64,000 bases of DNA from Cryomorpha ignava (GTDB lineage Bacteria; Bacteroidota; Bacteroidia; Flavobacteriales_D; Cryomorphaceae), in NCBI RefSeq assembly GCF_010686655.1, contig NZ_JAAGVY010000019.1, positions 1 through 64,000 on the forward strand, in the 5' to 3' direction. A program made the position numbers and the translations under genes. The notes below the pieces were generated by a model. That model had not been told where the DNA came from. It searched no databases and worked only from the letters and a program-made list of their open reading frames with translations. The number at the start of each line of letters is the position of its first letter. Within the stretch, counting starts at the first letter, position 1. This document shows, piece by piece, positions 30,199-41,447 of the stretch.

Positions 30199-31367
30199 AG
30201 AGTAAGTGTTTTTTTCGCCGCAGCATCCCAGGTATAATTCTGCATGACTTTTTGATGCCAGTTAGCAGCAATCAGTTTGCGACGCGTTTCGTCAGAGATG
30301 AGTTTCATCATTGCTGCATAAAAGTCATTTACATTGGGTTCCACAAGTTCACCATCGTCAGCACCCATTACGTCGTGCATGGGCACCTCGTTGGGGGCAA
30401 TAACGGGCTTTTGCAAAAGTCCGTATTCAAATATTTTAACCGGCGAACCGTACCAATTGCTTTTTGGCATACAGCAAATATCCATTAATTCTATGTTGGC
30501 ATACACCTCACGATGGGGTAAACTTCCTGTAAAAATAACTTTTTGAAACACATTGAGCGACTTTGCCAAAGCCTTCAAGTCGGGCAAAATAGCTCCATCG
30601 CCCACAATTAACAGACGAACATTCTTTTCTTCGGGTATTTTGGCAAATGCCTTAATCAAAACATCTACTCCGTGATACGGAAACATGGAGCCCACAAATC
30701 CCACAACAATTTCATTATCAATATTATAATCAACCCGCAATTTTTCATTTTTTTCTAAGGATAATTCTGCCGAGGCGGGATTAACTGAATTGGGAACAAC
30801 CAGAATCTTTGATTCAGCTTCGGGAAGAATTTTTGAGAGATACTTTTTCAAGGCAGAACTCACAACCGAAATACCGTTAGAATGTATCAGAATTTCACGC
30901 TCCATTTTTCGTGCTTTCGCTAGAAAAAAGGAATCGCCTGAAAAAGAAATACGCTCCTCAGGGTAGGGAGCATTGATTTCAGCAATATGCTTAATGCCAT
31001 ATCTCTGGGCCGTTCTTATTCCTGAATTTTGAAGGTAGGCTACACGTTCGTAAATTATATCGGGCTTGAAAATTTCAATTTGTGATTCAAGAATTTTCTG
31101 CTGTTCTCTATCAAACCGCATAAGTGAAAAATCGCGTAGCGATTGCCATACAAAGCCCGGGATCAATTTTTTAGCAGTACCAAATTTACCTTTCCCGGTA
31201 TTTTCGGCAGATTGGTATTCGCCCTGATCCAAATCGCCCGCAATAAATGTTCGAACTTCAATATCCATTCTACGCCATGCGGCAATCATCTCTCTAATAT
31301 GGGTACCATACCCCGTTGGGGCATACATACTAAGCTGTGGATGAGGCGAATAATAGAGTATCTTCAT
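30189..31367 (-). CDS. Glycosyltransferase family 4
   Basis: A GT4 enzyme of 392 residues with an N-lobe starting MKILYYSPHPQLSMYAPTGY and a C-lobe with VVGFVGSMFPYHGVDVLIKAF and PVKIFEYGLLQKPVIAPNEV (acidic motif in the donor site). Its start shares one base with the wecB stop (TAATG-type overlap), so translation is coupled. It probably acts on the cytoplasmic face of the inner membrane. Confidence 0.93.
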   Translation of the reverse strand: MKILYYSPHPQLSMYAPTGYGTHIREMIAAWRRMDIEVRTFIAGDLDQGEYQSAENTGKGKFGTAKKLIPGFVWQSLRDFSLMRFDREQQKILESQIEIFKPDIIYERVAYLQNSGIRTAQRYGIKHIAEINAPYPEERISFSGDSFFLAKARKMEREILIHSNGISVVSSALKKYLSKILPEAESKILVVPNSVNPASAELSLEKNEKLRVDYNIDNEIVVGFVGSMFPYHGVDVLIKAFAKIPEEKNVRLLIVGDGAILPDLKALAKSLNVFQKVIFTGSLPHREVYANIELMDICCMPKSNWYGSPVKIFEYGLLQKPVIAPNEVPMHDVMGADDGELVEPNVNDFYAAMMKLISDETRRKLIAANWHQKVMQNYTWDAAAKKTLTLCI

Positions 31368-32479
31368 TAAAAACCGTTGTTAAAAAAAGAATCAATTCTC
31401 GCCATAATTCGCTCTGTTGCTTTTCCGTCCCAATAGGCAGGCACCGATCCTTTCTTAAATCTTCCGGCCACAATATCGTCAATAAAAGGAGTTATTGCAT
31501 TTACATCAAAAGGAAGCAAAACATTGGTGCCCACTTCTATTGTAGAAGGCCTTTCGGTATTTGGTCTTAGCGTAAGGCAGGGCTTTTGCAAAAAGGTGGT
31601 TTCCTCCTGAATACCGCCACTATCGGTTAGCACAAACGCACAATCAGCTACGAGCTTTTGAAAATCAAGATAGCCAAGTGGCTCAGTTAAAATTAAATTT
31701 TCAATTTGATCAAGTTCAGCATTCAAGCCCATTTCAGTTATTTTATTTCGCGTACGCGGATGGATGGGGAATACGAGCTGCATATACGAAGCAGCAGCTT
31801 TTAAAACGCTGATCAGCTTGTGCACTCCTTCCGAAGTATCCACATTCGATGGACGGTGGAGGGTCACTAGAGCAAATTTGCCAGTTGCAAGATTCAGATC
31901 CTTTAGAATTATCGATTCCGAAATGTCATCCTTGAAAGCTACAAGCGTGTCTATCATGGTATTTCCCACAAATGCGATACCCGCTTCCGGTTTTTGCTCA
32001 TTCCTAAGATGTTGAAGACCAGAATCTTCGGTAACAAAATGTAGGTCAGCCAGATTATCTGCCACTAAGCGATTGTGCTCCTCGGGCATATTACGGTCGA
32101 AGCTACGCAGACCACTTTCAAGGTGAGCAATCGGAATATCACATTTATTGGCTGCTATGGCTGCGGCCAAGGTTGAATTTACATCTCCAACAACGATTAC
32201 CAAAGCCGGATTAGAATTTAGAAACAAGTCGGTAAGAGCCGTAAGGATATCTGCAATTTGTTTTGCGGGATGGTTGGGTTGAATGTCTAAAAAAACATCG
32301 GGGCGCAATTGAAACTGATCGAAGAACACATTTGCCATTTTCTCATCGTAGTGCTGGCCGGTATGAACTATTTTTATGGTAAGGTGATCATAATTTTTTG
32401 CCACACGCTTAAACTGGGTAACTTTTATAAAGTTTGGGCGCGTGCCAACTACGATCCATATTTCTTTTTTATTCTCCAA
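31367..32479 (-). CDS. wecB: UDP-N-acetylglucosamine 2-epimerase (non-hydrolysing)
   Basis: WecB converts UDP-GlcNAc to UDP-ManNAc. The 370-residue sequence carries the family landmarks: VVGTRPNFIKVTQF (11-24), HTGQHYDEKMANVFF (40-54), HLESGLRSFDRNMPEEHNR (118-136), VTLHRPSNVD, and LTDSGGIQEETTFLQKPCL near the C-terminus. It supplies ManNAc or a derived sugar to the polysaccharide. The WecC dehydrogenase is not in this window. Confidence 0.95.
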   Translation of the reverse strand: MENKKEIWIVVGTRPNFIKVTQFKRVAKNYDHLTIKIVHTGQHYDEKMANVFFDQFQLRPDVFLDIQPNHPAKQIADILTALTDLFLNSNPALVIVVGDVNSTLAAAIAANKCDIPIAHLESGLRSFDRNMPEEHNRLVADNLADLHFVTEDSGLQHLRNEQKPEAGIAFVGNTMIDTLVAFKDDISESIILKDLNLATGKFALVTLHRPSNVDTSEGVHKLISVLKAAASYMQLVFPIHPRTRNKITEMGLNAELDQIENLILTEPLGYLDFQKLVADCAFVLTDSGGIQEETTFLQKPCLTLRPNTERPSTIEVGTNVLLPFDVNAITPFIDDIVAGRFKKGSVPAYWDGKATERIMARIDSFFNNGF

Positions 32480-33710
32480 TCTCTATACTTCCTTTTTCTT
32501 CTAAAATTCCTACCAGTTCATTCGTAATCTTGTCTAAGCGGTGGTTTTCAATCCAGGTAAGGTCTGGTTTAAATTTAGAAAGACGTTTTAGCGCAGGTTC
32601 AAATTCTGTTTCTAATTTATCTAATGCTACGAATGTACCAAGACCTTTTTGAATAATCTGCTCACTAAGCGTTCCGGCATATCCCACTGCAATTATAGGT
32701 TTACCTGTAGCGGCAAATTCCAGAATTTTGGTTGGAAAACCATCTTTCAATCCTTCGGGAATAAGCAGTATTAAATTTTTAGTTTGCTGAATTCGATTGA
32801 AAAAATCTTTAACGGGTATTGCATTTCGAACTTTCATGTCTCCCCTGCTATTTAAAAGCCTCTTCGGAACTTCCGACTTGCTGTAAACTTCTATTCTCAA
32901 CCTTTTATCGGCTGAAAATCTGAAAAGGAATGCCAAAAGTGGCTCAAATCCTTTGTAAAGATTTCCACCATATATTAAGTCAAGTTCAGGCTTTAACTTC
33001 TTATCAATCTGAATATCGTCCTGATCCCAGCCATGCGGAAGCAATCGAAATTTTGATTTTTTCGCTGGATACCTATTCTTAAAACCGTCCACCACCAATT
33101 GCCACGGTGACACAATTTTATCATATTCGCCAACTATGAAATTTTCTTTTGCTTTTTCTGCCTCAAGTGCCTTTGTTCGCAAATTTCCATAGCCATAAAA
33201 ATCACCATCCAGCCAGGGATCCCGAAAATCTGCGATAAACTGAATCTCCGGATATTTGCTTCTAATTTTAGCGGCATAAAAAACCAAATTAACCGGTGGA
33301 CTCGAAACAATAAGTGCGTGCGGATTAAACGCAGTTAGCCTCTCTTCCAGAATTTCCAGAAAAGCCTTTTCATCGTAAAGAGCTCTATCGTATGGAGTTC
33401 CATCTGCTTTAAGCATTGCTTTAGTTAGCGACCAGCGGTAGCTTAGCTTCTGAAAAATATTACTTGGAGTTTTAGATAAAATAGCCGGATACTTGTTGCG
33501 ATAATGGTATTGCTTGATCTCCTTTGCATCATCCAACCACAATTGTGACGATGATTCGGGAAGCTTCGCAGAAATCACTTCAATTTCTACACCTTTTCGC
33601 TTTAAATACTTAGCAAACTTGGCCCACCGCCTACCACCAATTCCATCGGCCGGCGGAAAGGTGTGCGATACAATCAAAACACGCTTTTGTATATCGCCGG
33701 GTCTTTGCAA
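32469..33710 (-). CDS. Glycosyltransferase family 4-like protein
   Basis: This 413-residue GT-B protein has the N-lobe loop SHTFPPADGIGGRRWAKFAK (near 15-34), the IADFRDPWLDGDFYGYG motif near 160 typical of a GT4 subgroup in LPS clusters, and a C-lobe LIPEGLKDGFPTKILEFAAT with the acidic donor motif. It overlaps wecB by 11 bp. Donor and acceptor unknown. Confidence 0.88.
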   Translation of the reverse strand: MQRPGDIQKRVLIVSHTFPPADGIGGRRWAKFAKYLKRKGVEIEVISAKLPESSSQLWLDDAKEIKQYHYRNKYPAILSKTPSNIFQKLSYRWSLTKAMLKADGTPYDRALYDEKAFLEILEERLTAFNPHALIVSSPPVNLVFYAAKIRSKYPEIQFIADFRDPWLDGDFYGYGNLRTKALEAEKAKENFIVGEYDKIVSPWQLVVDGFKNRYPAKKSKFRLLPHGWDQDDIQIDKKLKPELDLIYGGNLYKGFEPLLAFLFRFSADKRLRIEVYSKSEVPKRLLNSRGDMKVRNAIPVKDFFNRIQQTKNLILLIPEGLKDGFPTKILEFAATGKPIIAVGYAGTLSEQIIQKGLGTFVALDKLETEFEPALKRLSKFKPDLTWIENHRLDKITNELVGILEEKGSIEIGE

Positions 33711-33711
33711 A

Positions 33712-34128
33712 TCAGATGTTTTTAAGTCTTTCCGCCACTTTGGTTAATATCGCGGTGGTACTATACCCGTGGCTTCTGTCGAGATAGTGAATTTTTGGGA
33801 TAGCTTCTCCAGCTGTTATTGGCTTACCGCGGTAATCGTCGCCGAGAAAGCGAATATCGAAACTTCCCTTTTTCATCAAATCAGTAAGCTCGTCTTCACT
33901 GGTGTAAAATTTCACTTCATCAACATATTTAATTGACGAGATAATCATTTTTCGTTCTTCAGCTGAAAAAACCGGTTTCCGTTTTCCGGGATTAATTTTC
34001 TCATCGAAATTATCAGCCGTGTTAATCGCTACGGTCAAATGGTCGCAATTTGCAGCGCACTCTTGTAGCATAAGCACATGCCCGGGATGATAAAAGTCAA
34101 AGACGCCACAAGCAAATCCACGTATCAT
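33712..34128 (-). CDS. TagD-like cytidylyltransferase family protein
   Basis: This 138-residue nucleotidyltransferase activates a phosphorylated substrate with NTP. It has the HxGH motif (GVFDFYHPGHVLML, near 8-21), RKPVFSAEERKMII, and a C-terminal LGDDYRGK plus RSHGYSTTAI. The last two match glycerol-3-phosphate cytidylyltransferase (GDDWEGK, RTEGISTT) better than the HldE adenylyltransferase domain, though HldE also ends GCSTTNII. CTP use is therefore an inference. It overlaps the epimerase by 4 bp and completes a kinase-isomerase-epimerase-nucleotidyltransferase cassette. Confidence 0.85.
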   Translation of the reverse strand: MIRGFACGVFDFYHPGHVLMLQECAANCDHLTVAINTADNFDEKINPGKRKPVFSAEERKMIISSIKYVDEVKFYTSEDELTDLMKKGSFDIRFLGDDYRGKPITAGEAIPKIHYLDRSHGYSTTAILTKVAERLKNI

Positions 34129-35042
34129 TTTATACTTTCTTTTATAAAAGTCTCAAGATCGTGCTTTGGAGTCCAGCCTAATATGCTTTTCGCTTTTGTA
34201 ACATCGGCAAAGGTAATTTCTGCTTCGCCATCCCTTTTGGGAATAAACTCGCATTTGTCAGAAATAAGTTTTGCCAGATCAAGCACCGACATGGTATTTG
34301 AGTGACCAATATTAAATGCGGTATTCAACTTTTCTGCATGAATTGCAGCCATATAATTCGCTCTCGCCAAATCTCTTACATGAATAAAATCGCGCTTTTG
34401 AGATCCGTCTCCAGTGATTAATAGCGGCTGGTTGTTTTTTGCCCGATCCAGAAAAATTCCGATAACGCTGCTATAAGCATTAAACTTATTATCAGGATTA
34501 AAGCTACGCGGGCCATAAGGATTAAAATACCGCAAATGCACAAAATCAAGCGGATAGCGCGTAGCGAGCATCTCAAAATATTTTTCTACTTCGTATTTTT
34601 GGAATGCATAAGGGCTAAGACATTCAATACGCTCATTTTCGGGTGTTGGAATTATTTTTGGTGTGCCGTATATGGCGCTCGACGAGCTATTTACAATTCT
34701 CGGAAAATGATTTTCGGCAATCATAATCTCAATGAGGTGCATGCTGCTCATGAGATTGGCATGAATATGCTCGTTAATCAACTCAAAGCTCGGCTGTATT
34801 CGCGGAAGCGCCGCCAAGTGAAAAACACACTCGTATTTTTTGAGTGATTTTAAATTAAAAAGCGTGTCTTCCACAAATTCAAATTGATTGTGGCCGAGCT
34901 GGAGCTCAATATTCTTTTTGTTTCCGGTACTTAAATCGTCAATTCCTGTGATTTGCCAATCTGTTGTTTCAAGCAGAAAATCGAGCAGGTTGCTTCCAAT
35001 AAATCCCGCTACACCGGTTATTAATACGTTTTTAATTTTCAT
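34125..35042 (-). CDS. NAD-dependent epimerase/dehydratase of the heptose-like cassette
   Basis: The ATG at 35042 is preferred. It gives 305 residues starting MKIKNVLITGVAGFIGSNLL and overlaps the SIS gene's stop as ATGA. A start 45 bp upstream would add a Ser/Arg-rich tail outside the Rossmann fold. Extended SDR features: GVAGFIGS, DDLSTGN, SSSSAIYGTP and the catalytic YAFQK. It looks closer to GalE/WbpP-type 4-epimerases than to HldD (ADP-heptose 6-epimerase). It lies inside the tightly overlapped four-gene cassette, so it may act on the sugar nucleotide made there. Confidence 0.88.
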   Translation of the reverse strand: MKIKNVLITGVAGFIGSNLLDFLLETTDWQITGIDDLSTGNKKNIELQLGHNQFEFVEDTLFNLKSLKKYECVFHLAALPRIQPSFELINEHIHANLMSSMHLIEIMIAENHFPRIVNSSSSAIYGTPKIIPTPENERIECLSPYAFQKYEVEKYFEMLATRYPLDFVHLRYFNPYGPRSFNPDNKFNAYSSVIGIFLDRAKNNQPLLITGDGSQKRDFIHVRDLARANYMAAIHAEKLNTAFNIGHSNTMSVLDLAKLISDKCEFIPKRDGEAEITFADVTKAKSILGWTPKHDLETFIKESIK

Positions 35043-35554
35043 ACCAGTTCGTCGAGTATTGCGTGAAGAATTACTTGATGAAAACATTCTACTATACCGT
35101 AATTTCTGCCGGGTGTGTTAAAATTGATGTCGCCAAGTTTTGAGAGCGAGTTTTCTGATTCAAAACCACTTAGGGTCACAACCTTTCCACCATTATTGCG
35201 GTGTTTATTTACTGCGTTGAGAATACTTGCCGATTCGCCTGATGAGCTAATTGCGACAAGAATATCGCCCGGTTGGAAAGAGAAGTTAACCCACTCAGCC
35301 ATGGCACTCTCGTATCCATAATCATTTGCAAAACAAGTAATTAAGGCAGCATCGGTAAAACTAAGGGTTTGCTTGGAAGCTATTTTCATATAATCTTCCA
35401 TCATATGGCTACATATCGCATTGCTGCCTCCATTCCCGATAAAAATCACTCGTTTTGCAGGTTTTATCATATGGACGGCTTCTGAAATTCCATTTCGGAT
35501 ACTTTCAGAGGCAAAATATTCGGCGAAAGCCTTATTATACAAATCTATCTGCAT
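35039..35554 (-). CDS. SIS-domain sugar isomerase, GmhA-like
   Basis: The 171-residue protein is a single SIS domain. It has IFIGNGGSNAICSHMMEDY (near 37-55), VAISSSGESASILNAV (near 97-112) and the C-terminal ECFHQVILHAILDEL, which aligns with the metal-site His helix of GmhA. GmhA turns sedoheptulose 7-phosphate into D-glycero-D-manno-heptose 7-phosphate. It is about 20 residues shorter than E. coli GmhA. It overlaps the kinase gene by 20 bp and the epimerase by 4 bp. Another ketose-aldose pair is possible. Confidence 0.82.
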   Translation of the reverse strand: MQIDLYNKAFAEYFASESIRNGISEAVHMIKPAKRVIFIGNGGSNAICSHMMEDYMKIASKQTLSFTDAALITCFANDYGYESAMAEWVNFSFQPGDILVAISSSGESASILNAVNKHRNNGGKVVTLSGFESENSLSKLGDINFNTPGRNYGIVECFHQVILHAILDELV

Positions 35555-36440
35555 GCGCTTTCAATTTTTCTTTAGTTACTTCCTCCTGATTGCACAGCCA
35601 GGTACACGACAAGCTGGCGGCCAGTGAAGGAACAAGCATTACATTGTCAATTTCCTTATAGTTTAATTCTGCTCCAAGGGCTGCAAAAGCATAAAAAGTA
35701 TCGCCGGCACCGATGGTATCCATTACAGGCCCTTTAAAAACCCGCTGATGTACATAATTTTTTCCATCGAAATAGACTGACCCTCTTGCTCCCAAAGTTA
35801 AGAAAAGCTTATCGGCCTGGAGCTCATAATTATACAAATTAGCAATAGCCGTGCGCTCACTAAAATCGGTTTTTGAATTTACTTGCAGACTCGCTTCGCG
35901 CAAATCCATGCAGGCACTCTTCTTTTCCCAATCTTTCCACTTACTCATTCGGTTATAACCAAAATTGTTGCTATTGGTCTGTGTCATAAAATGAAACTTT
36001 CCGTTAACTTTTAGTTTATCGCAAAAACCATGGCCAAAATCGGCAACGATAACCACATCATAGCCTGCAGAATCTATCTCAACCTCTCCAAAATTCCTGC
36101 TGTCAAATTTATTAATCTCAACGTGTTTCTTTTTGTCGTCTTTGTCTATCAGCCTCGTTTTTACAATCTCACCCTTCTTATTGGTAACAAGATCGACCTT
36201 TTCGACAAAATCTTCAAGGTGCTTAGCAATTGCCGCGGCACCGCCAAGCTGCTGCTCTTTTCCTCCGTCCGCATTCGTGTACCGAAATACCGGACAAAAC
36301 GATTTCATGCTCTGACCTTCGTATTCAACTTCAATAAATTCATCTATAATTGTTTCGCCAATTACACAGACTTTCATGTCTTTAACTTGATGAATAAAAC
36401 TTTCTATTTCACTTTTAATATTGGTCATTCCTTGTATCAC
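35535..36440 (-). CDS. PfkB/HldE-kinase-like sugar kinase
   Basis: This 301-residue ribokinase-fold kinase resembles the first domain of HldE (heptose 7-phosphate kinase). It has VCVIGETIIDEFIEV (near 24-38), EQQLGGAAAIAKHL (near 62-75) and the C-terminal anion hole/catalytic motif DTIGAGDTFYAFAALG, which includes the catalytic Asp. It lacks the fused nucleotidyltransferase domain of HldE; a separate TagD-like gene two genes downstream could provide it. It starts the four-gene cassette, about 97 bp after the preceding operon gene. Confidence 0.83.
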   Translation of the reverse strand: MIQGMTNIKSEIESFIHQVKDMKVCVIGETIIDEFIEVEYEGQSMKSFCPVFRYTNADGGKEQQLGGAAAIAKHLEDFVEKVDLVTNKKGEIVKTRLIDKDDKKKHVEINKFDSRNFGEVEIDSAGYDVVIVADFGHGFCDKLKVNGKFHFMTQTNSNNFGYNRMSKWKDWEKKSACMDLREASLQVNSKTDFSERTAIANLYNYELQADKLFLTLGARGSVYFDGKNYVHQRVFKGPVMDTIGAGDTFYAFAALGAELNYKEIDNVMLVPSLAASLSCTWLCNQEEVTKEKLKAHADRFV

Positions 36441-36537: not shown

Positions 36538-37560
36538 TTATAAATTTCCCGAAGCAGCAAAGTTCTCAATTTCCTGCATATTTAAAGCATAGTTTAATGA
36601 TTGTGAGGTTAGATTTTTGCGAAAGCGCACCGTATCCATTAATCCTTTAACTGGGGGCGACCCTTTGAAAATGATTAAAACGGGTGTTTTAACGTAGGCA
36701 CCCAGATGAACTGCACCGGAATGCTGTGTAATGATTAATCTGGCATTCGCACAATATTTCAGCGTATCGGCATTATCTGAAGATACCTTGAGTTCAATAT
36801 TTCCTCCTGAATTTACAACTGCGCTAAAAGATGGATGGCCCACCAGCAAAACCTTATCAAAATAGGGAGATACACGGCGTGCAATTTCTTCGTAATCCCA
36901 TGACTCACCATTGTTAGGAGTAACTTTGCCTCCTTTTTTTCGAGGAAAAATTACGCATATATTCTCTTTAGATTTTCCATACACTTTTGAAAGATCATAA
37001 ATACTCTGCTTCCCTTCGAGTTGCCAATTTCGAAAAACATACCAATACATATTGTTTTGCGAGATGTCCAGAATGGGCTTCCCTTCTGCTCTTGCCACGG
37101 CTTTAAAACCTTCAACAATTCCCCTGAATCGTTCAGGAAGAATGGTGGCGTTGGCATTGGGTGCTGATTCTGCAAAAAAATCGGGTAAAGGATACCATTT
37201 ATAAATTATGGAATCACCATTTTCATCAATAAGAAATGGCTTATGAAGCTCCATTCCACAATAGTGAATCTTAACGCCTTTTTTATGCAAATGAACTAAA
37301 AACGGTAAGTTATGGAGTAAAAAATGACCAAACTCACCTTTAAACGGGCCGTAATAGCATTCCTTTTGCTGTAAAGCATTTTTATAAAAGCTCTTAATCT
37401 TTCTGTAAGACTGCCATATTATTAATCGGTAATGGAGTTTCCCCTTCCAGTTTAATCCTTGCATACCATAGGCTACAGTAGATGCGCCATCTGTCGAAAT
37501 CAGAAATTCTTCTCTCGGGCTAAGCGATACAATTTCTTTAGGCATTTGGGAAAAGGGCAT
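36538..37560 (-). CDS. Glycosyltransferase-like protein (GT-B, possibly GT61 or GT9 related)
   Basis: The 340-residue protein has GEFGHFLLHNLPFLVHL near 75-91, like the YGHFLLE region of GT61/DUF563 enzymes. It also has CANARLIITQHSGAVHLGAY near 280-299, where GT-B enzymes bind the nucleotide sugar. The match is partial and the family is not certain. No signal peptide or membrane helix. It overlaps the GT4 gene before it by 23 bp and lies in the polysaccharide run. Confidence 0.6.
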   Translation of the reverse strand: MPFSQMPKEIVSLSPREEFLISTDGASTVAYGMQGLNWKGKLHYRLIIWQSYRKIKSFYKNALQQKECYYGPFKGEFGHFLLHNLPFLVHLHKKGVKIHYCGMELHKPFLIDENGDSIIYKWYPLPDFFAESAPNANATILPERFRGIVEGFKAVARAEGKPILDISQNNMYWYVFRNWQLEGKQSIYDLSKVYGKSKENICVIFPRKKGGKVTPNNGESWDYEEIARRVSPYFDKVLLVGHPSFSAVVNSGGNIELKVSSDNADTLKYCANARLIITQHSGAVHLGAYVKTPVLIIFKGSPPVKGLMDTVRFRKNLTSQSLNYALNMQEIENFAASGNL

Positions 37561-40772: not shown

Positions 40773-41447
40773 TTGGCAACAAAGATAAACGCATTGACAA
40801 CTCCCCAAAATAAAGCTTTTAATCAGAAAGTTTTTTGCATTGGTCTTAATAAAACAGGAACTACTTCTCTGGAGCAATTTATGCGAGAAAATGGTTTTAA
40901 ATGCGGAGATCAGGCTGAAGGAGAATTGCTTATTAATGCTTACACCGATAAGCGATGGGACGAGATAGTTTCATTTTGCAACTCGGCAGAATTTTTTCAA
41001 GATTTACCGTTTAGTGCGCCTAAAACAGCGGAAGTTTTACTTAAAAAATTCCCGGATGCCAAGTACATTCTTACCATTCGCGAAAGCGCTGAAGTCTGGT
41101 ATAAATCAATTACTGAATTTCATAAAATCAAGTTTGGCAAAGCAGGAAACTTACCGACTAAAGCAGATTTAAACCGGGCGCTATACCGCTACAAAGGCTT
41201 TGCATGGGATGCCAATCGGGCGCTCTATGATTCTCCCGAAAAGGAACCATATCAAAAAGTCACTTTAATCAAAGCTTACGAAGATCACATCCACAACGTA
41301 AATCAGCTTTTTAAAGGAAAGCAGAATTTGCTTATCATTGATATCGGTAAACGTGATGCGGTACAGCACCTGAACGATTTTTTAGGTATCAAATCGAATT
41401 TAAACACAATGCCCTGGCTAAACAAAACATCTGAAGCGAAAAAATGA
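40773..41447 (+). CDS. Sulfotransferase family protein
   Basis: The 224-residue protein shows the two PAPS-binding parts of sulfotransferases: the 5'-phosphosulfate loop FCIGLNKTGTTSLEQFM (near 21-37) and the 3'-phosphate region YILTIRESAEVWYKSI (near 96-111). It likely transfers sulfate to a sugar or similar group of the polysaccharide. No ATG fits before residue 37, so a TTG start is used, 17 bp from the divergent operon; the start is uncertain. It overlaps the aminotransferase gene by 4 bp (ATGA). Confidence 0.85.
   Translation: MATKINALTTPQNKAFNQKVFCIGLNKTGTTSLEQFMRENGFKCGDQAEGELLINAYTDKRWDEIVSFCNSAEFFQDLPFSAPKTAEVLLKKFPDAKYILTIRESAEVWYKSITEFHKIKFGKAGNLPTKADLNRALYRYKGFAWDANRALYDSPEKEPYQKVTLIKAYEDHIHNVNQLFKGKQNLLIIDIGKRDAVQHLNDFLGIKSNLNTMPWLNKTSEAKK
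40780..40787 (-). promoter_or_regulatory. Candidate -7 box for the main polysaccharide operon (TATCTTTG)
   Basis: The reverse complement reads TATCTTTG, an exact TAnnTTTG match, 24 bp ahead of the first GT2 start on the minus strand. It lies inside the first codons of the divergent sulfotransferase gene, whose own start is a weak TTG. Confidence 0.4.

What the first reader, a model, noticed from the sequence alone, without database searches (positions are those of the whole stretch)
33712..36440. Four-gene kinase / isomerase / epimerase / cytidylyltransferase cassette that may make an unusual nucleotide heptose
Seen: four minus-strand genes overlapping by 20, 4 and 4 bp. They encode an HldE-like kinase, a GmhA-like SIS isomerase, an extended SDR and a TagD-like nucleotidyltransferase. 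Known: GmhA plus HldE (kinase and nucleotidyltransferase fused) and HldD make ADP-heptose, with phosphatase GmhB. Here the kinase and nucleotidyltransferase are separate, GmhB is absent from the window, the SDR looks GalE/WbpP-like instead of HldD-like, and the transferase has cytidylyltransferase-type motifs (GDDYRGK, RSHGYSTT). Inference: the product may be a CDP-heptose or a related CDP-activated sugar for the surface glycan.
Basis: partly seen in the sequence, partly recalled or inferred. Interest (0 to 1): 0.6.

Follow-up and report, generated by a model that had tools for sequence, protein, structure and literature searches.

The report
Sugar-activation cassette, probably for CDP-heptose
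A bacterium carries, besides its ordinary heptose pathway, a second compact set of genes that probably makes an unusual seven-carbon sugar activated with CDP and hands it to a dedicated sugar-transferring enzyme for its surface coat; the idea is well supported by comparison but not yet by chemistry.

Summary
The four overlapping genes are real. They form a conserved unit: kinase and isomerase side by side in 36 of 36 related loci, transferase in 35, orthologous SDR in 29. The next gene (36538-37560) was found in 11 of 249 genomes of the order, all among the 12 with the kinase; its predicted fold matches heptosyltransferases best. The genome also encodes an ordinary ADP-heptose set elsewhere, so this is a second, specialised set. 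The transferase is neither HldE/RfaE2 nor TagD but its own clade on the TagD side, with cytidylyltransferase motifs. A GmhB-like phosphatase gene follows it in 3 of 39 cassettes; in 31 of 36 viral loci holding both, a domain that looks HAD-like is fused to it. Most likely product: a CDP-activated, then epimerised, heptose. The pathway scheme is well supported; sugar and nucleotide are inferred. Against: family scores below curated cut-offs, an altered isomerase metal-site pattern, a weakly assigned viral HAD domain, and 72 of 80 viral loci found by the transferase showing no partner in the DNA held.

The parts
35535..36440 (-). PfkB-type sugar kinase; the likely true start is the ATG at 36428. 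Proposed step: phosphorylates C1 of a sugar phosphate.
   Evidence: Pfam PfkB 36.4 bits. Best NCBIfam model of the window protein is rfaE_dom_I (44 of 345 bits needed); that model is matched by 9 of 9 members of A2. Own clade, 100/100, inside a 100/99 group with kinases of NT-kinase fusions, apart from HldE kinases. GAGDT motif in 9 of 9.
35039..35554 (-). SIS-domain ketose/aldose phosphate isomerase, GmhA-like with an altered metal-site pattern
   Evidence: gmhA model matched by 37 of 37 members and best in the window protein, 73 of 209 bits needed. PDB best match GmhA, E 3e-15. H50, D54, E156, H164 invariant in 37 of 37, where the host's own GmhA has H, E, Q, H.
34125..35042 (-). Extended SDR, GalE-like nucleotide-sugar epimerase (proposed epimerisation of the activated sugar)
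   Evidence: Pfam Epimerase 158.8 bits; galE 148 bits against heptose_epim 103 bits, both below cut-off. Y145 and K149 (YxxxK) invariant in 9 of 9. Ortholog in 29 of 36 related loci.
33712..34128 (-). Cytidylyltransferase-like nucleotidyltransferase with RFLGDDY and RSHGYSTT motifs
   Evidence: Own clade, 100/96, on the TagD side of the tree, apart from RfaE2/HldE. RFLGxDY and RxHGxS[ST][ST] in 34 of 34 rows of A6. Predicted fold closest to TagD 1coz, Z 15.6; HldC Z 14.0.
36538..37560 (-). Heptosyltransferase-like (GT-B, GT9-like) glycosyltransferase that travels with the cassette; probable user of the activated sugar
   Evidence: AlphaFold2 mean pLDDT 90. Best PDB matches are GT9/WaaC/WaaF/TibC, Z 12.1-13.8. 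Found in 11 of 249 genomes of the order, all 11 with the kinase. In 30 of 36 related loci.
32469..33710 (-). Neighbouring glycosyltransferase-like gene, part of the same surface-glycan cluster, not of the core cassette
   Evidence: Weak Glyco_transf_4 match below cut-off; a homolog lies directly after the transferase in 4 of the 8 relatives.
31367..32479 (-). UDP-GlcNAc 2-epimerase, same surface-glycan cluster
   Evidence: Pfam Epimerase_2, 327 bits.

Best explanation
The four genes are a nucleotide-sugar module. The SIS protein converts a ketose phosphate, probably sedoheptulose 7-phosphate, to the aldose phosphate. The PfkB kinase adds a phosphate at C1. A GmhB-type phosphatase, encoded elsewhere in this genome, removes the other phosphate. 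The TagD-like transferase joins the sugar 1-phosphate to CMP from CTP. The GalE-like SDR then epimerises the CDP-sugar, and the adjacent heptosyltransferase-like protein passes it to the cell's surface glycan. Shown by comparison: the gene unit, its conservation, the enzyme classes, the linkage to the glycosyltransferase, and a phosphatase gene beside some copies. Inferred: the order of steps, heptose as the sugar, CTP as the donor, and the position epimerised.
For: Conserved unit: 36 of 36 kinase-isomerase, 35 of 36 with transferase. Nearest named families: gmhA for the isomerase, rfaE1 for the kinase, GmhB for one cassette HAD and among the best for another, heptosyltransferases for the fold of the linked glycosyltransferase, HddA for the kinase of two viral versions. 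The SDR is the exception (galE). The glycosyltransferase occurs only with the kinase in 249 genomes: 11 and 12, nested. GmhB-like HAD gene right after the transferase in 3 of 39 cassettes. Of 80 viral loci found by the isomerase, 63 have an HddA-like kinase, 63 a transferase, 51 an SDR. CTP: TagD-like GDDY and R-x-x-G-x-S[ST][ST] motifs, while RfaE2/HldE rows show KGxDY/W and no such Arg; tree. Because an ADP-heptose set sits elsewhere in the genome, a separate product is the simplest reason for a second set.
Against: All NCBIfam equivalog scores of the four proteins are well below the curated cut-offs. The isomerase's metal-site pattern differs from GmhA (Glu to Asp, Gln to Glu) and it lacks five residues after the first pair, so the substrate may differ. 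The glycosyltransferase reaches no Pfam cut-off; only 6 of 29 members touch GT9, even at E up to 1, and its linkage was measured with a profile made only of cassette-linked copies. In 72 of 80 viral loci found by the transferase no partner was seen in the DNA held, though only 28 of the 80 hold 12 kb or more. The domain fused to viral transferases is a weak HAD assignment: below the Pfam cut-off in SynMITS9220M01, no Pfam match for the related genes of S-SSM7 and S-T4, and not detectably related to the cassette HADs. rfaE_dom_II, an adenylyltransferase model, is the transferase's best NCBIfam model by 6 bits. The STTR5 Arg that marks CTP/UTP use in heptose transferases (PMC11573728) is Tyr here.
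Confidence: 0.5

Rival explanations
1. The same module, but for another sugar: a pentose or hexose (for example from ribulose 5-phosphate or fructose 6-phosphate), activated with CTP and epimerised.
For: The SIS protein has a non-GmhA metal-site pattern and a shortened loop. SIS, PfkB, HAD and SDR folds serve many sugars (general knowledge). The kinase's clade signature (QTNSNNFG) differs from HldE kinases.
Against: Nearest named families of isomerase and kinase are heptose enzymes, as is that of the viral kinases; the linked glycosyltransferase folds like heptosyltransferases. The SDR (galE) is neutral.
Confidence: 0.25
2. A heptose module whose transferase is loose or ATP/UTP-using, so the product is ADP- or UDP-heptose or a mixture (as for some heptose enzymes of Tang et al. 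2024).
For: rfaE_dom_II is the transferase's best NCBIfam model by a small margin (67.6 against 61.7 bits for TagD). NTP promiscuity is reported for heptose transferases (PMC11573728, PMC11461863), also without STTR5 in one Salmonella enzyme (PMC11461863).
Against: Tree and motifs place it with cytidylyltransferase-type proteins. The model fits TagD (Z 15.6) a little better than HldC (Z 14.0).
Confidence: 0.15
3. A CDP-glycerol type enzyme that happens to sit beside sugar genes (true TagD function).
For: TagD is the closest structure. Transferases annotated beside CDP-glycerol and LicD transferases fall in the TagD-side clade.
Against: Lies outside the TagD clade, 61.7 of 165.4 bits needed, and is in a near-constant unit with a sugar isomerase and kinase (35 of 36 loci).
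Confidence: 0.05
4. [quoted passage not shown]
For: Same enzyme classes.
Against: Canonical set elsewhere in the genome; transferase and SDR are of other families.
Confidence: 0.05

Closest known systems
ADP-heptose pathway (GmhA, HldE or RfaE1/RfaE2, GmhB, HldD)
   Same: Isomerase, C1 kinase, phosphatase, nucleotidyltransferase, SDR epimerase in that logic; isomerase and kinase are distant relatives.
   Different: Kinase and transferase separate and in other clades; TagD-side transferase; GalE-like SDR; a phosphatase gene in only 3 of 39 cassettes. The canonical set is also present in this genome.
GDP-heptose pathway (GmhA, HddA, GmhB, HddC; gene set recalled)
   Same: The viral version uses an HddA-like GHMP kinase with the same isomerase, transferase and SDR types.
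   Different: The bacterial cassette uses a PfkB kinase; the transferase is CTP_transf_like, not an HddC-type guanylyltransferase (HddC's fold is recalled, from no call).
NDP-heptose biosynthetic enzymes across kingdoms (Tang et al. 2024, seen only through two commentaries, PMC11573728 and PMC11461863)
   Same: Some of those transferases also made CDP- and UDP-heptose; the enzymes occur in viruses too.
   Different: Their promiscuity mark is (F/L)XXGRSTT; here R-x-H-G-x-S[ST][ST]. They report the phosphatase absent in viruses; here a domain that looks HAD-like is fused to the transferase in many viral loci.
TagD, CTP:glycerol-3-phosphate cytidylyltransferase
   Same: Fold, GDDW/Y and R-x-x-G-x-STT-type motifs.
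   Different: Separate clade, sugar-pathway neighbours, score far below the TagD cut-off.
C. jejuni CDP-6-D-glucitol pathway (PMC10918830)
   Same: Cytidylyltransferase plus an SDR for a capsule sugar.
   Different: PF01128-type transferase acting on fructose 6-phosphate; a two-enzyme pathway without SIS isomerase or C1 kinase.

Membership tests
GmhA (sedoheptulose 7-phosphate isomerase) | Scores over the curated gmhA cut-off (209.45 bits) | tested here: not met
   73 bits; the host's other GmhA reaches 238.
GmhA (sedoheptulose 7-phosphate isomerase) | Metal-site residues His, Glu, Gln, His (their role as ligands is recalled; the residues were read from the host's GmhA) | tested here: not met
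   His50, Asp54, Glu156, His164 in the window and invariant in 37 of 37.
GmhA (sedoheptulose 7-phosphate isomerase) | Turns over sedoheptulose 7-phosphate | not testable with these tools
   Needs an enzyme assay.
HldE/RfaE1 kinase | Over the rfaE_dom_I cut-off (345 bits) | tested here: not met
   44 bits; separate clade. The host's own RfaE1 reaches 336.
HldE/RfaE1 kinase | PfkB family with GAGD active-site motif | tested here: met
   Pfam PfkB over cut-off; DTIGAGDTF in 9 of 9.
RfaE2/HldE adenylyltransferase | Groups with RfaE2/HldE and over cut-off (181.5 bits) | tested here: not met
   67.6 bits, against 164 for the host's RfaE2-like protein; other side of a 98/98 branch.
TagD glycerol-3-phosphate cytidylyltransferase | Groups inside TagD and over cut-off (165.4 bits) | tested here: not met
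   61.7 bits; TagD rows form their own 100/94 clade without it.
TagD glycerol-3-phosphate cytidylyltransferase | HxGH and R-x-x-G-x-STT motifs | tested here: met
   HPGH and RSHGYSTT.
HldD (ADP-heptose 6-epimerase) | Over the heptose_epim cut-off (274.6 bits) | tested here: not met
   103 bits; galE 148 bits, also below its cut-off.
NTP-promiscuous heptose transferases (STTR5) | Arg at position 5 of (F/L)XXGRSTT | tested here: not met
   Arg-Ser-His-Gly-Tyr-Ser-Thr-Thr: Tyr at that place.
GT9 heptosyltransferase (gene 36538-37560) | Over the Pfam GT9 cut-off (22 bits) | tested here: not met
   13.6 bits, E 0.042; 6 of 29 homologs match at E up to 1.
GT9 heptosyltransferase (gene 36538-37560) | GT-B fold closest to known heptosyltransferases | tested here: met
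   Z 13.8 for 3tov (rmsd 3.8, 249 aligned), 13.7 WaaC, 13.4 WaaF, 12.3 TibC; other listed glycosyltransferases at most 10.3, plant NDH subunits 12.2.

The most novel reading that the evidence does not exclude
A dedicated CDP-heptose pathway, devoted to CTP and parallel to the ADP-heptose pathway of the same cell, exists in Bacteroidota and, with an HddA-like kinase and a fusion of a putative phosphatase domain to the transferase, in many viruses. It ends in an epimerised CDP-heptose used by its own family of heptosyltransferase-like enzymes. This would be a physiological role for CDP-heptose, which a commentary calls elusive (PMC11573728), and could supply the phosphatase reported as absent in viruses (PMC11461863).
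Probability: 0.32. Interest if true: 0.72.

Novelty: new variant of a known kind. Interest (0 to 1): 0.55.

Why it matters
CDP-heptose has been made in vitro, detected in Burkholderia cells and shown to trigger mammalian ALPK1 signalling, but its role in producers is described as elusive (PMC11573728). A conserved operon that looks built to make it, with a linked glycosyltransferase of its own, makes that question directly testable in bacteria that are not known pathogens. The viral counterparts, if their fused domain is a phosphatase, would complete a pathway that was reported to lack that step in viruses (PMC11461863).

Tried and rejected
Considered and set aside: (1) four chance frames: conserved in sequence, order and overlap across 36 loci. 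(2) Redundant ADP-heptose genes: canonical set elsewhere, different families. (3) True TagD: tree and cut-off against. (4) Promiscuous STTR5 transferase: motif not met. (5) SDR as a 4,6-dehydratase: the galE model scores higher (148 against 108 bits); not tested further.

Led nowhere: the profile search of PDB with the kinase gave only other PfkB-type sugar kinases (9 sequences). The kinase search of plasmids gave 2 distant matches. The phylum-wide kinase search matched 170 of 395 genomes at E up to 1e-3; besides the window's own kinase (572.6 bits) only G103, a 512-residue transferase-kinase fusion, was strong (135.8 bits), the next listed being 39 bits. In viral PfkB loci the transferase is mostly of another type: by motif, of 41 R-x-H transferases in the isomerase-found loci 40 go with the GHMP kinase (one of these also with PfkB), whereas 5 of 7 KGxD types go with PfkB; 15 were of neither type. 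Literature searches (listings) showed no report of such a cassette; the Science paper of Tang et al. is not held.

Rows dropped: transferase alignment A6 leaves out L048 (frame broken near the end), L054 (no transferase), L062 (near copy) and L081 (contig end). Isomerase alignment A7 leaves out L050 and L062. GT alignment A5 uses 28 of 29 full-length copies outside the window (L062 left out), from a cluster of 32. The tree dropped 5 of 70 rows; its long-branch warnings apply to fusion and phage rows. Overlaps were measured in 35 of 36 loci (not L050). The 36 loci include near copies (such as L061/L062, L073/L080).

Full report
OBSERVATION. The window holds four minus-strand genes at the stated place: kinase 35535-36440, isomerase 35039-35554, SDR 34125-35042, nucleotidyltransferase 33712-34128, overlapping by 20, 4 and 4 bases. 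The Pfam domains PfkB, SIS, Epimerase and CTP_transf_like all exceed the cut-offs. They lie in a surface-glycan cluster: glycosyltransferases on both sides, a UDP-GlcNAc 2-epimerase, a protein with the O-antigen ligase domain and a DegT aminotransferase.

A CONSERVED UNIT. Of 40 relatives searched, including the window's own genome, 9 have a close transferase (53% identity or more). The 8 others all carry kinase, isomerase, SDR and transferase in that order. Two of them have a further gene before the transferase (a Methyltransf_24 protein where tested, L032) and one a stretch without an open frame. A scan of named genomes with the kinase profile gave 36 loci, 34 of them titled Bacteroidota or a subgroup. 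All 36 have kinase and isomerase side by side, 35 the transferase (cut or broken in two), 29 an orthologous SDR. The kinase/isomerase overlap is 20 bases in 29 of 35. The SDR is the variable part: two of the seven loci without it (L052, L055) have another SDR upstream, and in L076 it follows the transferase. This fits an enzyme that works on the finished nucleotide sugar (inference).

A LINKED HEPTOSYLTRANSFERASE-LIKE GENE. The next gene, 36538-37560, has no Pfam family over its cut-off; its only weak match is GT9, E 0.042, and 6 of 29 homologs match GT9 at E up to 1. Its model from 29 sequences (mean pLDDT 90) matches GT9, WaaC, WaaF and TibC best: Z 13.8 to 12.1, rmsd 3.8-3.9, 237 to 249 residues. 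Plant NDH subunits come at 12.2 to 11.6 and other glycosyltransferases at 10.3 or less. It is in 30 of the 36 loci. In 249 genomes of the order it occurs in 11 and the kinase in 12, the 11 being among the 12 (hypergeometric 3e-18). That figure ignores kinship (7 of the 11 are of the window's family), and the profile was made of cassette-linked copies, so distant unlinked ones could be missed. The twelfth genome has its kinase on a 4.4-kb contig. A fold shows no donor, but a constant partner that looks like a heptosyltransferase favours a heptose.

NOT THE ORDINARY PATHWAY. The same genome encodes, on other contigs, GmhA (238 bits, over the cut-off), RfaE1 (336 of 345 bits), a GmhB-like protein (157.5 of 178 bits with PRK08942), an RfaE2-like protein (164 of 181.5 bits) and HldD (376 bits, over the cut-off). 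[quoted passage not shown]

THE TRANSFERASE. In the motif alignment, RfaE2/HldE rows show KGxDY or KGxDW and lack an Arg before the last motif; TagD rows show an xDW motif (GDDW in three of four) and R-T-x-x-I-S; cassette rows show RFLGxDY and R-x-H-G-x-S-[ST]-[ST], the latter two in 34 of 34 rows of A6. The tree (65 rows) gives the cassette rows their own clade (100/96), sister to other R-x-H transferases (joint clade 100/98). These join a TagD-containing clade (98/92) and are cut off from RfaE2/HldE by a 98/98 branch. The predicted fold is nearest TagD 1coz (Z 15.6), with Fom1 cytidylyltransferase 14.7 and HldC 14.0. Against this, rfaE_dom_II is its best NCBIfam model by 6 bits. CTP use is thus likely but inferred.

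THE PHOSPHATASE. A kinase acting before a sugar-1-phosphate transferase needs a phosphatase in between, as in the four-step ADP-heptose route (PMC11573728). Directly after the transferase, a GmhB-like HAD gene is present in L066, L082 and L202, 3 of 39 cassettes examined in the DNA held. In viruses, cyanophage SynMITS9220M01 has an HddA-like kinase, the isomerase, a HAD-like domain fused to the transferase, and an SDR in a row; its paper lists heptose-related LPS genes (PMC7378029, passages). Of the best 80 of 229 viral loci found by the isomerase, 63 have an HddA-like kinase, 63 a transferase, 51 an SDR, 40 such a HAD-like domain and 10 a PfkB kinase. HAD-like domain and transferase are one frame in 31 of 36. 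The HAD label of this viral domain is weak: a DxDxT motif by eye, a polynucleotide-phosphatase match just under the Pfam cut-off in one of three tested, E 0.002 with the host's GmhB-like protein, and no relation seen to the cassette HADs. The same transferase and isomerase types thus work beside a PfkB kinase in bacteria and beside an HddA-like kinase in 40 of the 41 viral loci with an R-x-H transferase, as if the HldE and HddA routes had swapped kinases. But of the best 80 viral loci found by the transferase, 72 show no such partner; 28 of the 80 hold 12 kb or more.

THE ISOMERASE AND KINASE. The gmhA model matches 37 of 37 isomerases, far below its cut-off in the window protein (73 of 209 bits). 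His50, Asp54, Glu156 and His164 are invariant, where the host's GmhA has His, Glu, Gln and His, and five residues after the first pair are missing. That these are zinc ligands in GmhA is recalled, not tested. The kinase forms a clade (100/100) within a group (100/99) that includes kinases of transferase-kinase fusions of other bacteria and viruses, and lies apart from HldE kinases. These points leave room for a different ketose phosphate.

VERDICT. A variant nucleotide-sugar pathway with a linked glycosyltransferase. The scheme of isomerase, C1 kinase, phosphatase, transferase, epimerase is well supported (about 0.8, my estimate). Heptose about 0.6, CTP about 0.7; the composite statement 0.5 or slightly less. 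Known context: CDP-heptose has been made in vitro and found in Burkholderia, role elusive (PMC11573728, text of section 0 part 1; PMC11461863, section 0 part 1; the primary paper was not seen). PMC10918830 (abstract and section 23) and PMC7729866 (passages) were used for known CDP-sugars. The listings of searches showed no report of this cassette in the open-licence library searched; subscription journals are mostly not in it.

Noticed in passing
L153:7061-7396 and L154:7906-8253: In cyanophages S-SSM7 and S-T4 the gene annotated 'phosphoheptose isomerase' does not look like an isomerase: it is 38-40% identical to the HAD-like part of the SynMITS9220M01 fusion; neither has a Pfam match.
   Followed up: partly
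L087:1477-3015 (L176:6441-7979): A 512-residue protein with the transferase first and the kinase second, the reverse order of HldE, followed by the isomerase; similar fusions in viral L084 and L085 and plasmid pDCAR1 (L150), with radical SAM genes near L150.
   Followed up: partly
L080: Record titled Candidatus Saccharibacteria carries a cassette and several neighbours shared with Bacteroidota locus L073; perhaps a mis-binned contig.
   Followed up: no
L047:7183-8004 and relatives: A family of about 270 residues without a Pfam match over its cut-off sits between the glycosyltransferase and the kinase in the window's close relatives; there is no room for it there in the window (about 100 bases) (L047 copy tested).
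   Followed up: no
L054, L072, L076, L032 (= L050), L039 (= L081): Methyltransferase genes beside or inside the cassette: Methyltransf_23 in L072 with homologs in L054 and L076, Methyltransf_24 in L032 and a similar gene by eye in L039; the sugar may be methylated in some strains.
   Followed up: partly
   Followed up: partly
window 40773-41447: A plus-strand sulfotransferase gene (Sulfotransfer_4, 72 bits, over cut-off) at the switch of transcription direction in the glycan cluster: the glycan or a lipid may be sulfated.
   Followed up: partly
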